From: Otis tarda
Taxonomy: Eukaryota > Chordata > Aves > Otidiformes > Otididae
Reading direction: 5' to 3'
DNA length: 64,000 bases
NCBI GenBank assembly: GCA_026413225.1
Contig: CM048552.1
Coordinates: 140,133,053 to 140,197,052 of the forward strand
Shown: in pieces, positions 10,115-20,338 of the stretch
How the letters are laid out: every line of letters starts with the position of its first letter
Numbering within the stretch: the first letter of the stretch is position 1
The notes under the pieces: model-generated
Told to the model about the DNA's origin: nothing
Database searches by the model: none
What the model saw: only the letters and a program-made list of their open reading frames with translations
Position numbers and translations under genes: made by a program

Positions 10115-10992
10115 ACATAAATCTCATGCAAAGGGACCTTGACAGGCTGGAGAAGTGGGCCCGTGCCAACCTCATGAAGTTCAACAAGGTCAAGTGCAAG
10201 GTCCTGCACATGGGTTGGGGTAATCCAAAGCACAAATACAGGCTGAGTGGAGAATGGATCAACAGCAGCCCTGAGGAGAAGGACTTGAGTGTGCTGGCAA
10301 ATGAGAAGCTCAACATGAGCCAGCAATGTGCACTTGCAGCCCAGAAAGCCAGCTGCATCCTGGGCTGCATCTAGAGGAGCATGGCCAGCAGGTCAAGGGA
10401 GCTGATTCTGCCCCTCTACTCTGCTTTGGTGAAACCCCACCAAACTCCCACCTGGAGTACTGAGTGCAGCTGTGGTTGCCCCCAGCATAAGAAGGATATG
10501 GATCTGCTGGAGTGAGTCCAGATGAGGGCCACAAAGATGATAAGAGGGCTCAAGCAGCTCTCCTATGAGGACAGGCTGAGAGAGTTGGGGCTGTTCAGCC
10601 TGGAGAAGAGGAGGGTCCGGGGAGACCTTATAGCAGTCTTCCAGTACCTCAAGGGGGCCTACAGAAAAGACAGGGAGAAACTCTTCAGCAGGACCTGTTG
10701 TGAAAGGGTGAAGGGTAATGTTTTTAAAACAGAGGGACATAGATTCAGACTTAATATAAGGAAATATAAGGAATATAAGGAAACAATTTTTTACAGTGAG
10801 GGTGGTAGAACACTGGAACAGGTTGCCCAGAGAGGTAGTGGATGCCCCATCCCTGGAAACATTCAAGGCCAGGCTGGATGAGGCTCTGAGCAACCTGATC
10901 TGGTTGAAGATGTCCCTGCTCCTTGCAGAGGGGCTGAACTAGATGACCTTTGAAGGTCCTTTCCAAACCTAACTATTTTATGATTCTATGAT
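10115..10992 (+). mobile_element. CR1 LINE, 5'-truncated 3' end
   Basis: It starts at the CR1 segment encoding [23 protein letters not shown] residues and continues through the RT C-terminal region (10090-10374 and 10522-10881 frames) and the 3' untranslated region to the tail tatgattctatgatc. A TAG near 10372 and a small expansion of AAGGAATAT-type sequence near 10755-10785 break the frame. This is the most complete 3' segment in the window and serves as the internal reference for the deletions noted in the 4512-6960 copy. Confidence 0.95.
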
Positions 10993-15206: not shown

Positions 15207-15546
15207 TGTTGAAGATGGTCATCTAACTAACAGGGATATGGGGCCCTGCAAGGCAGCAACAAGGCTACAAGTAGGGCTGCACGTACACAGGAAGGGCGGT
15301 CCGCAACAATTCGCGCGCTTGCTGATGCAATACCTCATGCTAGGTGCAGATAGGTACACGGGCGTAGGGGGCGGGTGCATTCTCATGCGTAGTGGGTGTA
15401 CAGGCTTGCATAGCGGGCGTATGGGTATATATCACGATGTGATGCAGCAGTAAATTGAGAGCTGACTCCACGGCATCTGTATCTGTGTCTCTCTCCCTGG
15501 GATGGGATCCTAGTAGGGGGGGGCGGTTCATTGTCATGCGGCGACA
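15207..15546 (+). repeat. Probable 5' LTR of the endogenous retrovirus
   Basis: The end is placed at ACA (15544-15546), two bases before the primer-binding site. The start is placed at TGTTG (15207), which forms an imperfect inverted repeat with CGACA. Inside are a TATATAT box (15426-15432) and an AGTAAA, one base away from AATAAA, 23 bases further on (15449-15454). That spacing suits a U3/R arrangement with a short R. The upstream part carries a degenerate repeat of GCGTAG/GGGCG-like units (about 15360-15425). The 5' boundary is the weakest point; no target duplication can be tested because the 3' end is lost. Confidence 0.6.
15426..15432 (+). promoter_or_regulatory. TATA box of the retroviral 5' LTR
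   Basis: TATATAT stands alone in a GC-rich U3 and lies 23 bases before the polyadenylation-like AGTAAA. Confidence 0.55.
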
Positions 15547-15548
15547 AG

Positions 15549-15566
15549 TGGTGACCTCGATGTGAT
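15549..15566 (+). other. Primer-binding site, tRNA-Trp type
   Basis: TGGTGACCTCGATGTGAT begins with the TGG that pairs with a tRNA CCA end. It differs at only two positions, both C to T, from the 18-base tRNA-Trp primer-binding site known from alpharetroviruses. It sits two bases after the presumed LTR end, which is the expected place. The identification rests on recall of the tRNA-Trp site and is strong because of the length of the match. Confidence 0.8.
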
Positions 15567-15595
15567 CTGATGGATCGGGTTTTCAGTGCACCAAA

Positions 15596-17383
15596 GTGAG
15601 CGGGGCTCGGGGTAATCCAGACCTAATTGTGTCGACGGTATCCGTCAAGGAAACGGTGAAGGTTCTAAAGGTACTGGCTAAGGAGGTAGGCGAGAAAGTC
15701 TCCTCTAGCGGTACAGAGGACCTTATCCAATGGATGATACATAAGGGGATGATCCAACAGTCTTCGCAGGTGATGGATCTGGAAAAGGTAGTAGCGGTGG
15801 GGGGGGAACTGTTAGCTTCTGCTGCCGCGGGGAACAAAATTGCCCTGTCCTTTATTCCCGAGTGGGGGGCAGTCAAGAGGTGCCTTGAGAAGGTCCGCGA
15901 TGTTCAGGGTGTCTGGCAAGCCGTGGCTTCAGTGGTTTGCGGGGATCCACTGAGTGAAAGGCAACCTGACTCGGGTTCCGACGGTCGGACTAGTAGTGAT
16001 ACGTGGAGCGATAGTGAGGCGGGAGCCAGTTTTGAGGTGGCGCCTGAGGAGCCGCAGGACGCGGAGCGGGGTCCTAGCACCTTCCCGGTGGGGAAAGGGG
16101 ATCCAGCTTATAAACCGGATGCAGCAGCTGATTCGTTCTTTGGGGGGGAGCCCGATTTTCCAGTGACGCCTGCCTGGGTGGGGCCTCTGCCCTCTGCGCC
16201 ACCAGCCTATGAGGGCTTACCCGCAGACGCAAGCACGCCTTCGGCCCAGCCAGAGAACGTTCCCCTACCCCCATCGGTGGGTCCGCAATCATGGTTGGGA
16301 TCAGGGGAGGACTTAGTGCACCGTTTGCTTTCAGAAGTCCGTCGTTTGGCAGTTAATTCGGGAGGGCTGGCGCAGGAGCTGGCGAGGTGGTCATCCCCGC
16401 CAGACCCAGTCAAAGGCAGGCGAAGCCCCTCGGGTCCAGACGAGTCCTCGCTGGGCCCTGACCCTGCCGCCCACTGGCGGTTTGTTGTTGAGAACTGCGC
16501 CCTCCAATGGGTAGCCCATGTGACTTCGATTTCACCGGATGTCCCCCAGGAGGGAGAACTGATGGCCTTCCCAGTGGTGAGGGGTCCCGGTGGGGCTAGG
16601 TGGGAGCCCATCAACTGGAAGATTGTTAAGGAAATCCGTAACGTGGTAACCACCTCGGGGTTAAGCAGCCCCACCTGTGAGGCTTTGTTGGATGTACTTG
16701 AGCCCAGTGCCTTCACGCTTTATGACTGGCGTAATCTGTGCAAGGCTATTCTTACGCCCGCACAGCTGGTGGTTTTTGAAAGCAAGTGGGAGGGTTTTGC
16801 GGTGGATGCCTCCATTGGCTTCACTACATCTGCAAATCACCCATGTTTTGGGGTGGGGGCAGACCAGTTGCGTGGTGTTGGGGCCCACGTCGATTCTCGC
16901 TGCCAATGCACCTGGGACCCTGCCATCCTCCAACAGGCTGGCCTCTTAGACAGGAAAGCGTTGAAGGCAGTTGCTCGGATGGACACGAAGAGCCCGCCAT
17001 ACACCTTGATTAAACAGAAGGCCAACGAACCTTACCTGGATTTCTTAGATCGCCTTAACAAGAGCCTTGATGTGTCTGGCCTGCCCAGTACCACTAAAGG
17101 TCCTTTGGGGAAAGACCTCACCTTTTTGAATGCAAATGATGTCTGTAAAAAGGTGATCCAGGGACTGCCGGCAGGTTCTGGGTTGGGCCAGATGATTGAA
17201 GCATGCATTAGAGCTGAGAGAGCGAGGGATGCAGAACCGTTAGCGTTTGCAGTCACCTCGGTGGGGAAACAAGTGGTCACTTTGCTGGATGGGGCCTCCG
17301 GACAAGGGCGATGTTTTCAATGTGGGAGTATGGGCCATGTGAAGAGGGACTGTCCCTCTGAGAAACCGGGGGGGAGCTGGTGA
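15596..17383 (+). CDS. gag: Retroviral Gag polyprotein (595 codons, open)
   Basis: Gag builds the immature virus particle at the membrane. The frame is open from the GTG at 15596; the upstream stop is TGA at 15563. There is no ATG until residue 47 (15734), so either the native start codon has mutated to GTG or translation began elsewhere. Residues 15-130 look like a helical matrix domain. Overlapping late-domain motifs PSAP (199-202) and PPAY (202-205) lie in a proline-rich region. Capsid follows, with a major homology region near residues 473-488 (QKANEPYLDFLDRL). The first CCHC zinc knuckle is at residues 573-586 (CFQCGSMGHVKRDC). The frame ends in TGA shortly after a seven-G run (17368-17374). 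The second knuckle lies further on in the next phase, so the frame is broken just before its natural end. Confidence 0.9.
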   Translation: MSGARGNPDLIVSTVSVKETVKVLKVLAKEVGEKVSSSGTEDLIQWMIHKGMIQQSSQVMDLEKVVAVGGELLASAAAGNKIALSFIPEWGAVKRCLEKVRDVQGVWQAVASVVCGDPLSERQPDSGSDGRTSSDTWSDSEAGASFEVAPEEPQDAERGPSTFPVGKGDPAYKPDAAADSFFGGEPDFPVTPAWVGPLPSAPPAYEGLPADASTPSAQPENVPLPPSVGPQSWLGSGEDLVHRLLSEVRRLAVNSGGLAQELARWSSPPDPVKGRRSPSGPDESSLGPDPAAHWRFVVENCALQWVAHVTSISPDVPQEGELMAFPVVRGPGGARWEPINWKIVKEIRNVVTTSGLSSPTCEALLDVLEPSAFTLYDWRNLCKAILTPAQLVVFESKWEGFAVDASIGFTTSANHPCFGVGADQLRGVGAHVDSRCQCTWDPAILQQAGLLDRKALKAVARMDTKSPPYTLIKQKANEPYLDFLDRLNKSLDVSGLPSTTKGPLGKDLTFLNANDVCKKVIQGLPAGSGLGQMIEACIRAERARDAEPLAFAVTSVGKQVVTLLDGASGQGRCFQCGSMGHVKRDCPSEKPGGSW

Positions 17384-17576
17384 GAAGGCTCAAGCCTCGA
17401 AGGAGTGTTTTAAATGTGGGAAGAAAGGACATTACTCGTATGAGTGTCGGTCGGGAAACGGGGTTCGGAGGGCCCGTCTGAGTGCGACGACACAAATGCG
17501 GGCAGCACCCCCTCCGCAGAGGCCTCTGGCTATGGCCAGGGTGCCATGGCCAGGGCCCAACCAGGAACGCGATTAA
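17384..17576 (+). pseudogene. gag: C-terminal end of Gag (second zinc knuckle), out of phase
   Basis: CFKCGKKGHYSYEC (17406-17447) is a second CCHC knuckle, the usual pair to the one ending the 595-codon frame, but it lies one phase over. The phase change falls between the two knuckles, near the G7 run at 17368-17374, a typical place for an indel. This phase stays open to TAA at 17574-17576. It therefore overlaps the protease frame by about 120 bases downstream of the slippery site, as in betaretroviral gag-pro overlaps. Confidence 0.8.
17453..17459 (+). promoter_or_regulatory. gag-pro -1 ribosomal frameshift site (GGGAAAC)
   Basis: The heptamer reads G GGA AAC in the phase of the second zinc knuckle, six bases after its last Cys codon. 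A -1 slip enters the protease frame. The same heptamer is used at the gag-pro junction of some betaretroviruses. Six bases downstream, CGGAGGG (17466-17472) can pair with CCCTCCG (17510-17516). GCCCG (17472-17476) can alternatively pair with CGGGC (17499-17503). This gives the GC-rich structure expected of a frameshift stimulator. Confidence 0.8.
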
Positions 17577-18135
17577 GAACTGACAAGCCCCTTTTTCTCC
17601 GGGGCCCGACTTGGACCTCGGTTGTGGGCTCGCCGCAGGGGGGAGGACCAGGGTTAGTCTGCGGGGGCTTTGGGGCCAAGGACTGGGGAATACAGGTGTG
17701 GCCGTCATATCAGGATGCAGCATCAGTGACAGAGGTTGAGGTGACACCGCTGACGGACACCCCTGTATACGTCCTGCAGGATCTGCCCCTTGCCATGGCC
17801 ACGTGGGATCTAAGTTCGAGAACGCGTACGAGCATGACACTTTCTCAGGGTTGGGACGAAATTCATGTCATCTGCCTTATCGATTCAGGTGCAGATGTTT
17901 CTGCATTTAGTAGAGAGGTCTGGCCCTCTGGGTGGAGGGCGGTTACCTGCCCACTGGGCATCTAAGGTGTGGGGGGTCATAGCAGTGCCCAACGCAGTGT
18001 GGATCTAGTAACGATTAAGCTTGAAGGGGAGGAAGGGGAAGCGCAAGTAAGACCCTATGTGCTTGCCAGACTCCCTCTCAGCCTGCTAGGCAGAGACGCT
18101 TTGGCACAGCTGCAGGCCCGGATCCTCATAGGGCC

Positions 18136-18142
18136 GGATTTT
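18136..18142 (+). promoter_or_regulatory. pro-pol -1 frameshift site (GGATTTT)
   Basis: G GAT TTT lies in the protease phase, directly before the pro stop codon TGA at 18143. A -1 slip enters the reverse transcriptase frame, whose open stretch continues from 18142. The heptamer closely resembles the G GAU UUA and A AAU UUU types known at betaretroviral pro-pol junctions. Confidence 0.7.
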
Positions 18143-19281
18143 TGACAGGGGACACTGAGGGTATTGGCCCGGTGAAGCTTTCCTGGAAGTCTGACCGGCC
18201 TTTGTGGGTCAGTCAGTGGCCCCTATCACAGGAAAAACTGGCCCATCTTCACACACTGGTACAGCAGGAGGTGGCCACTGGCCATCTAGTATCGACCACT
18301 AGTCCGTGGAACTCTCCGGTATTTGTAATACAAAAGAAATCTGGGAAATGGCGATTCATACACGACCTGCAAATTGTCAATGACTCCATGTACAACATGG
18401 GTCCTCTGCAACCAGGTTTACCCATCCCTTCTATGCTTTCCCGTGATTGGCAGCTGTTAATTGCAAGTTTAAAGGATTGTTTCTTTACTATACTCCTTCA
18501 TTCCGATAATTGCCCGAGATCTGCCCTTACAGTCCCCTCTCTGAATAACGGTGAGCCGGCTAGGAGATACCACTGGACGGTGCTTCCCCAGGGGATGAAG
18601 AATTCCCCCACCATATGTCAGTGGTATGTGGCGGCTGCTCTGCAGCCGTTCTGCCAAGAGCATCCCGAATACCTTGTGTACCATTACATGGATGACATCC
18701 TGGTTGCAGGGTGCCCCTTAGGCCCAAGTGTCGCCCTTAAGTTAGCGAGCCGATTGTCATGCATTGGGTTACAAATAGCCCCAGAGAAAGTCCAACACAC
18801 TGCACCTTTTAAGTACCTTGGGTCCGTTATCAGTAACAGAAGAGTCGCCCCCCAGAGACTGAAGATAGATATGCCAGTGTCAACTTTGAACGACTTACAG
18901 CAGCTGATTGGTGGTATCCAGTGGATTCGATCCTTTGTTCCGGTGACACCGGAAGAAACACGCCCACTGACTGAAGGTTTGGCGGGGGAGCCGGACCCGT
19001 TGTCCCTTCAGCAGTCAACACCAGCTCAACGGGAAGCAATCTCCTGCATTGAGGCCAAGATAGCTACCTTTGCTCTGGGTCGATGGATTCCAGGACGGAG
19101 CCTGGAGGCCCATCTTACAGTCGCTGTGGCTGGGGTTACAGTACTGCTGTACCAATGGGACTCAGGAGCTTGTGAGAAGGATAGGATGGTTCCAATCTTA
19201 TGGCTGTATTCAGCATCCAGGGGTCGAACAGTCATTAAGGTTTCTGAGGCGCTTGGAGATGCCATCCTGCGTGCTCGCTGA
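18142..19281 (+). pseudogene. pol: Retroviral reverse transcriptase (pol, RT and connection)
   Basis: The frame is open for 379 codons from the frameshift point and has no start codon of its own, as expected for a domain expressed by frameshifting. Motifs in order (residues from 18142) are: fingers with SPWNSPVFVIQKKSGKWR (about 54-71); motif A region ASLKDCFF (108-115), where Ser109 stands at the position usually held by the first catalytic Asp; LPQG (148-151); YMDD (182-185); FKYLGSVIS (about 226-234), the thumb start; and a connection region with LQQLIGGIQWIRSF. It ends at TGA 19279-19281, before RNase H. The missing motif A Asp means the encoded enzyme would be inactive even without the later stops. 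Relationship is to beta/alpha-type (ERVK-like) RT. Confidence 0.92.
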
Positions 19282-19925
19282 CAGGCCCTACAACTGTCAG
19301 GGACTGATTTGAGTCACTGCTCCTGTGACCTGCCACAGGCGATGTTCGAAGGGGCTCTTATGACTGACCCTTGCCTTCAGCTGGCCCTCGCTAACTACTC
19401 AGGTACCCTTGGGAGGCCACGCCCGCACCCGTGACTAGTGCGGTGTGCATCCTTCCCCTGTAGGCCTGTTGTTCCCCTCTCACCACGCCCTGTGTCCGGC
19501 CAGACAGTTTTCACCAATGCATCAGGGAAAACACGACAAGCGGCATACGTTTGGTACGATCGGGAGAAATGGCACTCAACAAACAGCATGTATGGGTAGG
19601 AATGGGGAATCTGCAAGACTTGGAGTTGCAGGCTATTCGAGCAGTCCTAGAGCGTTGGCTCACCGAGCTGATTAACATTGTCATGGACAGCGAATACTGT
19701 TTCGTCCTAGTAACTAGGCTGTCAAAAGCCTTAGCCATCCTGACTAAGGCCACCCAAGACCTGCGTACCTGTCTCTCAACACAAGCTGCCCCTTTCTTTA
19801 TTACCCATATTCACAGTCACACTCGGCTGCCAGGCCCACTTGCCGAAGGCAATGCCCGGGCGGACCAAGCCGCTGGGTCACCCGTTACTATGTACACGGA
19901 GCCGGTGCCAGGCCTGTTTGAATAG
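19282..19925 (+). pseudogene. pol: Retroviral RNase H domain, frameshifted
   Basis: The domain starts in the RT phase with FTNASGKT (19510-19533), where Asn replaces the first catalytic Asp. After TAG near 19597 it continues in another phase with LELQAIRAVLERW (about 19620-19660), IVMDSEY, and HIHSHTRLPGPLAEGNARAD (19807-19866), which holds conserved His and Asp residues. TAG at 19923-19925 ends the frame. RNase H degrades the RNA strand of the RNA-DNA hybrid during reverse transcription. At least one frameshift and a stop make this copy non-functional. Confidence 0.88.
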
Positions 19926-20218
19926 GCCCATCAGTCCCATGGGTTTTATCATCAGGGCGCACACGCCATACGACGTCAGTTCCAACTGCCCATCTCACAG
20001 GCTCGGGCTATAGTGGCAGCCTGTCCGGCATGCCAAGTAGCAAAGCCGAACCAGCCCTTATACTACCTAGGCATTAACCCCTGGGGGTATGCTTCGAACC
20101 AGGTATGGCAAGTGGATATCACAGAGTAAGCACCATTTGGCCGTCTTAAGTACATTCATGTTGTGGTCGACACTTGTTTCCGAGCTCTCTTTGCGTGTTC
20201 ATTCACGAGGTCCACGGC
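19926..20218 (+). pseudogene. pol: Retroviral integrase, N-terminal fragment
   Basis: It continues the RNase H phase directly after the TAG at 19923. The HHCC zinc-binding region is visible: two His in SHGFYHQGAH and the pair CPAC, followed by QVAKPNQP. The catalytic core begins with WQVDITE (about 20106-20126), holding the first catalytic Asp. A TAA follows at 20127-20129, and then a VVVDTCFRALFAC stretch that includes the second Asp. The sequence breaks off at about 20218, so the third catalytic residue and the C-terminal domain are absent. Integrase inserts viral DNA into the host genome; this fragment cannot. Confidence 0.88.
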
Positions 20219-20338
20219 GCAGATGACCTTTGAAGGTCCCTTATAACCCTAACCATTATGATTCCATGATTCTATGACAGGCTGAGAGAGTTGGGGCTGT
20301 TCAGCCTGGAGAGAAGAAGACTATGGGGAGACCTTAGC
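20219..20338 (+). mobile_element. Two CR1 pieces in reversed order
   Basis: Bases 20219-20274 match the CR1 3' end (agatgacctttgaaggtccc through the ATTCTATG tail), equivalent to 2931-2985. Bases 20275-20338 match an internal CR1 segment (gagagttggggctgttcagc), equivalent to about 2579-2640, which should lie some 300 bases before the tail. Both are in plus orientation. The pair abuts the truncated integrase directly, so it marks a rearrangement rather than a single insertion. Confidence 0.9.

What the first reader, a model, noticed from the sequence alone, without database searches (positions are those of the whole stretch)
15207..20218. Endogenous retrovirus combining a tRNA-Trp (alpha-type) primer site with a three-frame (beta-type) gag-pro-pol
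The PBS differs from the tRNA-Trp site of alpharetroviruses at two bases. Gag, Pro and Pol occupy three phases joined by two -1 shift sites, as in betaretroviruses; alpharetroviruses have a single shift and Pro inside Gag. The mix suggests a lineage between or beside these genera.
Basis: partly seen in the sequence, partly recalled or inferred. Interest (0 to 1): 0.75.

Follow-up and report, generated by a model that had tools for sequence, protein, structure and literature searches.

The report
Broken bird retrovirus, alpha-beta intermediate type
A decayed, cut-off retrovirus in what looks like a bird genome mixes traits of two retrovirus genera, but it resembles a bird group already described as intermediate between them, so it is a new member rather than a new kind.

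Summary
The element is real: one 340-base 5' LTR, a primer site matching the recalled tRNA-Trp complement at 16 of 18 bases, then gag, pro and most of pol, cut off inside integrase at about 20220, where CR1-like repeats begin. No env or second LTR was found in the window.

One correction: as the sequence stands, the long Gag frame and Pro share a phase. The three-phase, two-shift layout (GGGAAAC at 17453, GGATTTT at 18136) appears only if the frame change between the two Gag zinc knuckles is a lesion, which I favour but did not prove.

The RT is about equally far from python ERV, HERV-K and avian leukosis virus (37-40%). Its nearest relatives are an unnamed protein (65% over 57% of the piece) and a white-tailed-eagle protein. 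No dUTPase or G-patch was detected.

Chicken 'alpha-beta' intermediates with -1/-1 frames, no G-patch and often no dUTPase were published in 2005 (PMC1224870). I found no statement of their primer tRNA, but key papers were not held and no relative's DNA was seen. Verdict: new member of a known kind.

The parts
15207..15546 (+). 5' LTR, 340 bases, TG...CA; TATATA at 15426, AGTAAA at 15449
   Evidence: no second copy in the window
15549..15566 (+). primer binding site, 16 of 18 to the recalled tRNA-Trp complement; both differences C to T
15566..17383 (+). Gag frame, phase 2: matrix-like start, PSAPPAY (16190), CA N and C domains, zinc knuckle 1 (17312); first in-phase ATG is codon 57 (15734)
17384..17576 (+). 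zinc knuckle 2 (17406) and Gag tail, phase 0; frame change against the Gag frame lies between the knuckles
17453..17459 (+). GGGAAAC, candidate gag/pro -1 shift site, in phase with knuckle 2
17460..18145 (+). Pro, phase 2: about 125 residues without detected kin, then protease (DSGA at 17882); stop at 17963, end stop at 18143
18136..18142 (+). GGATTTT, candidate pro/pol -1 shift site, directly before the Pro stop
18143..19278 (+). Pol, phase 1: RT (YMDD at 18685) and thumb; stop at 19279
19464..19922 (+). RNase H piece, phase 0; stop at 19923
19926..20219 (+). integrase zinc domain and start of the core, phase 0; stop at 20127; cut off
20220..20334 (+). CR1-like 3' end followed by a CR1-like internal piece, joined to the cut integrase
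   Evidence: the name CR1 is recalled

Best explanation
This is the 5' part of a dead class II endogenous retrovirus, most likely in a bird, of the 'alpha-beta' intermediate kind that gene catalogues call ERVK-like. In its live ancestor tRNA-Trp primed minus-strand DNA synthesis at the PBS, and ribosomes slipped back one base at the end of gag and again at the end of pro to make Gag, Gag-Pro and Gag-Pro-Pol. After insertion it gathered stops and frame changes and lost the integrase end, env and the 3' LTR at a junction with CR1-like repeats. Shown: the anatomy, the phases as they stand, the lesions, the truncation and the RT likeness. Inferred: the bird host, primer use, frameshifting, and that the frame change between the knuckles is decay.
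For: PBS 16 of 18 to tRNA-Trp at the right place; slip heptamers at both boundaries in the right phase, and Pol reads on directly behind the Pro stop in the -1 frame; RT hits with organism names are birds, window grouped with P0002 (SH-aLRT 95) and white-tailed-eagle P0024 (98); 37-40% to alpha, beta and python ERV alike; CA nearly as close to RSV-type (54 bits) as to HERV-K (61); no dUTPase, no G-patch, as in most of the published alpha-beta group; LTR 340 against a published mean of 290.
Against: The gag/pro shift needs one lesion to be assumed. The heptamer has a chance rate of 93 in 2000 shuffles, with two stray in-phase ones in Gag, and the fold behind it is no better than shuffles (z -0.27; 77 of 200). 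HERV-K RT scores 305 bits with the window piece, inside the 291-358 range of the 120 listed hits, so the RT is not shown to be closer to birds as a group than to mammalian betaretroviruses. The tree has no alpha or mammalian row. No Gag relatives were found.
Confidence: 0.7

Rival explanations
1. Alpha-type layout: Gag and Pro were one frame, with a single -1 shift at pro/pol, and two opposite frame changes around zinc knuckle 2 only make it look three-phased.
For: The 605-aa Gag frame and Pro are in the same phase as the sequence stands; tRNA-Trp is the alpha primer (recalled); the N-terminal protease piece matches only alpharetroviral proteases among retroviral chains in PDB (19 bits).
Against: Needs two compensating lesions within about 200 bases instead of one; an in-phase GGGAAAC sits just behind knuckle 2; RT, RNase H, CA and IN pieces score best with HERV-K or MMTV-type chains.
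Confidence: 0.15
2. Recombinant: a beta-like gag-pro-pol joined to an alpharetroviral LTR and leader carrying the tRNA-Trp site.
For: PBS and a short 340-base LTR look alpha-like (alpha mean 325) while pol pieces score best with beta-type chains.
Against: Gag and protease are themselves mixed; the intermediate group with short LTRs already exists; no alpharetroviral LTR was available to compare.
Confidence: 0.1
3. The PBS belongs to another tRNA, and the tRNA-Trp likeness is an accident of decay.
For: Two mismatches; only seven tRNAs were compared, all recalled, and no host tRNA set was available.
Against: 16 of 18 against 7-11 for the other six; both differences are C to T, keep G-U pairing, and one is at a CpG of the tRNA-Trp complement.
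Confidence: 0.04

Closest known systems
Chicken 'alpha-beta' intermediate ERVs (GGERVAB; Jern et al. 2005, PMC1224870)
   Same: -1/-1 frames as most often scored there (Gag-Pro 5 of 7, Pro-Pol 5 of 9), no G-patch (0 of 67), dUTPase often missing (found in 21 of 67); short LTR (mean 290 of 47)
   Different: their primer tRNA was not found in print, and no sequence of theirs was at hand to compare
Bird proteins named ERVK-like Pol (P0024 of white-tailed eagle; unnamed P0002)
   Same: nearest RT relatives: 65% over 57% of the piece (P0002), 56% over 60% (P0024); grouped at SH-aLRT 95 and 98
   Different: short protein pieces; their LTR, PBS and frames are unknown here
Betaretrovirus (MMTV, M-PMV, HERV-K)
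   Same: -1/-1 pattern; HERV-K and MMTV-type chains score best for RT, CA, RNase H and IN pieces
   Different: PBS not tRNA-Lys (9 of 18); no dUTPase, no G-patch; RT 38-40%
Alpharetrovirus (ALV, RSV)
   Same: tRNA-Trp-like PBS; short LTR; no dUTPase or G-patch; N-terminal protease piece matches alpharetroviral proteases
   Different: Gag-Pro layout (if the lesion reading holds); RT 37% to ALV; CA and IN pieces score below HERV-K and MMTV types
Python endogenous retrovirus
   Same: top viral match of the RT by E-value, tied, 38%; called intermediate in PMC1224870
   Different: reptile host; no closer than ALV or HERV-K

Membership tests
Alpha-beta intermediate bird ERVs | Pol placed between alpha and beta genera | tested here: inconclusive
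   37-40% to ALV, HERV-K and python ERV alike; no tree with named alpha and beta rows
Alpha-beta intermediate bird ERVs | -1/-1 frames | tested here: inconclusive
   pro/pol -1 is met; gag/pro -1 is met only if the change between the knuckles is a lesion
Alpha-beta intermediate bird ERVs | no G-patch; dUTPase often absent | tested here: met
   Pfam up to E 1 shows neither in the Pro pieces; the dUTPase-bearing hits do not match the Pro N-part; Pro ends at 18143
Betaretrovirus | tRNA-Lys primer | tested here: not met
   9 of 18 to recalled Lys1,2 and Lys3 complements
Betaretrovirus | dUTPase and G-patch in Pro | tested here: not met
Alpharetrovirus | tRNA-Trp primer | tested here: met
   16 of 18, recalled tRNA only
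Alpharetrovirus | Pro fused to Gag in one frame | tested here: inconclusive
   same phase as the sequence stands, but knuckle 2 between them is in another phase
Alpharetrovirus | RT nested among alpharetroviruses | tested here: inconclusive
   37% to ALV, no closer than HERV-K or python ERV; no alpha row in the tree
Alpharetrovirus | env type and splice pattern | not testable with these tools
   env is missing from this copy

The most novel reading that the evidence does not exclude
A distinct, so far unnamed bird lineage, shared at least with the white-tailed eagle, combines a tRNA-Trp primer with two -1 shifts and lacks dUTPase and G-patch. tRNA-Trp priming would then predate the genus Alpharetrovirus, and the fusion of Pro to Gag would be the later alpharetroviral change.
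Probability: 0.2. Interest if true: 0.45.

Novelty: new member of a known kind. Interest (0 to 1): 0.25.

Why it matters
If close relatives share the tRNA-Trp site and the two shifts, the order in which alpharetroviral traits arose could be read from bird genomes: primer first, Gag-Pro fusion later. By itself this single broken copy adds one more data point to an intermediate group already in print.

Tried and rejected
Without result: a second LTR and other stretches like the 120 RT relatives, some of which carry env or integrase-end domains, elsewhere in the window (tblastn, E up to 0.001): none. A dUTPase in Pro: none (Pfam up to E 1; blastp against the 120 hits gave one chance match, E 7.1). 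Viral contig scans with the RT, with the tRNA-Trp complement and with alignment A1: nothing confirmed. Gag protein searches, whole and CA part: nothing at E up to 0.001. CA model from a single sequence: mean pLDDT 39, not used. RT model: mean pLDDT 66.9, pTM 0.45, used only to reach named viral Pol entries; I use the identities, not the low TM-scores. tRNA genes and Rfam families in the window: none. The ARAGORN run used the bacterial code.

Papers: eight searches (one search was aimed at turkey LPDV, at chicken families). Seen: PMC1224870 passages plus sections 5 and 9; passages of PMC11067759, PMC10820513, PMC2717909, PMC8744268, PMC11009239, PMC5260121, PMC5006616, PMC2664473; part 1 of 2 of PMC2329609. 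None of what I saw states the PBS type of the alpha-beta group. The DOI tried for Bolisetty et al. 2012 and the 2014 LPDV paper PMC3925403 are not held.

Considered and left: a tree with HERV-K and an outgroup; I had no sequence of them in file form. The bit scores stand in for it and are told as a result against nesting.

Full report
What is there. On the plus strand, 15207-15546 reads as one LTR (TG...CA, TATATA at 15426, AGTAAA at 15449), followed by two bases and an 18-base site that matches the recalled tRNA-Trp complement at 16 positions. It is the only site in the 64 kb window with up to three mismatches; the shuffle mean is 0.01. Both differences are C to T and keep G-U pairing, and one is at a CpG of the tRNA-Trp complement, so decay of a perfect site is the simplest reading. 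Six other recalled tRNAs match at 7-11 of 18. Only seven tRNAs were compared, none taken from the host.

Genes. The Gag frame 15566-17383 (phase 2) holds both CA domains and zinc knuckle 1. Knuckle 2 is in phase 0 (17384-17576), protease in phase 2, and RT with thumb in phase 1. RNase H and the integrase start are in phase 0. The first in-phase ATG of Gag is codon 57, behind a matrix-like stretch, so the start codon seems lost. The copy is dead: a frame change between the knuckles, stops at 17963, 19279, 19923 and 20127, and a frame change before RNase H. It ends inside the integrase core at about 20220, where a CR1-like 3' end and then an internal CR1-like piece follow, with copies elsewhere in the window. 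CR1 is named from recall, and it is one reason for calling the host a bird.

Frames. The three-phase claim is an inference, not a plain reading: the long Gag frame and Pro share phase 2. If the change between the knuckles is a lesion, Gag-Pro is -1 at GGGAAAC (17453) and Pro-Pol is -1 at GGATTTT (18136), and Pol reads on behind the Pro stop in the -1 frame. Results against: an in-phase canonical heptamer occurs in 93 of 2000 shuffles of the overlap; two more lie in phase inside Gag at 15577 and 16792; the fold behind GGGAAAC is ordinary (z -0.27; 77 of 200 shuffles fold at least as well). Behind GGATTTT the fold is somewhat better than shuffles (z -1.55; 12 of 200). GGATTTT is not of the canonical XXXYYYZ form; from recall it resembles the MMTV pro/pol site, and GGGAAAC is the M-PMV-type gag/pro site. 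The rival, an alpha-type Gag-Pro fusion with two compensating lesions, is less economical but not excluded.

Kinship. The RT search gave 618 hits, of which the best 120 were listed: 38-65% identity, 291-358 bits. The rows that show an organism name are birds by my reading; many rows have no name. Over about 90% of the piece the best bird proteins are 44-46% identical; 65% and 56% are reached over 57-60% of it (P0002, P0024). In a quick tree of these 120 and the window (311 columns, midpoint root) the window pairs with P0002 (SH-aLRT 95), then with P0024 of white-tailed eagle (98), inside a set of 48 rows (95). The tree holds no alpharetrovirus and no mammalian betaretrovirus. HERV-K RT scores 305 bits with the window piece, within the range of the 120 listed hits, and 376 bits with the swallow protein P0041. 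So bird and mammalian ERVK-like RTs interleave, and nesting within birds alone is not shown. Against viral models the RT is 38% to python ERV, 38% to a human ERV polymerase and 37% to ALV, and 39-40% to HERV-K RT in PDB; these identities come from Foldseek alignments and are not strictly comparable with BLASTP values.

Other genes. PDB bits, with virus names partly recalled: CA HERV-K 61, RSV-type 54; IN start MMTV-type 40, RSV-type 30; RNase H HERV-K 33. The N-terminal protease piece matched alpharetroviral proteases at 19 bits. The C-terminal piece matched M-PMV-type at 20.6, a probably HTLV-type protease at 19.5 and an RSV-type one at 15.5. No alpharetroviral RT appears in the 60 chains shown of 205. 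No Gag relatives were found in two protein searches. Overall it is a mixture leaning to beta.

Known or new. Jern et al. 2005 (PMC1224870; passages and sections 5 and 9) list 67 chicken alpha-beta ERVs: Gag-Pro -1 in 5 of 7 scored, Pro-Pol -1 in 5 of 9, dUTPase in 21 and G-patch in 0 of 67. They place several chicken ERVs and a python virus between the genera. Chicken alpha-beta LTRs average 290 bases over 47, exogenous alpha 325 over 3, exogenous beta 382 over 3 (PMC2664473 passages). The window element fits that group by frames (if the lesion reading holds), lack of dUTPase and G-patch, and LTR length. The primer tRNA of the group was not found in what I saw from eight paper searches; Bolisetty et al. 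2012 was not held.

Limits. The host genome tool did not complete. No DNA of any relative was seen, so PBS and frames of relatives are untested. Age cannot be dated without a second LTR. CpG observed/expected is 0.58 in the element against 0.17 in the rest of the window, which may reflect a fairly recent insertion or its GC-rich make-up.

Noticed in passing
2179-2574 and 10516-10881: Open frames that look like remnants of CR1 LINE reverse transcriptase, by eye and recall; the same repeats flank the provirus cut.
   Followed up: partly
17460-17840: About 125 residues at the start of Pro, where betaretroviruses carry dUTPase, match no Pfam family up to E 1 and none of the 120 relatives except one chance match.
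   Followed up: partly
15566-15734: Very short leader and no in-phase ATG before Gag codon 57; start codon lost, or leader deleted.
   Followed up: no
16190: PSAPPAY in Gag combines two late-domain motif types in seven residues (motif names recalled).
   Followed up: no
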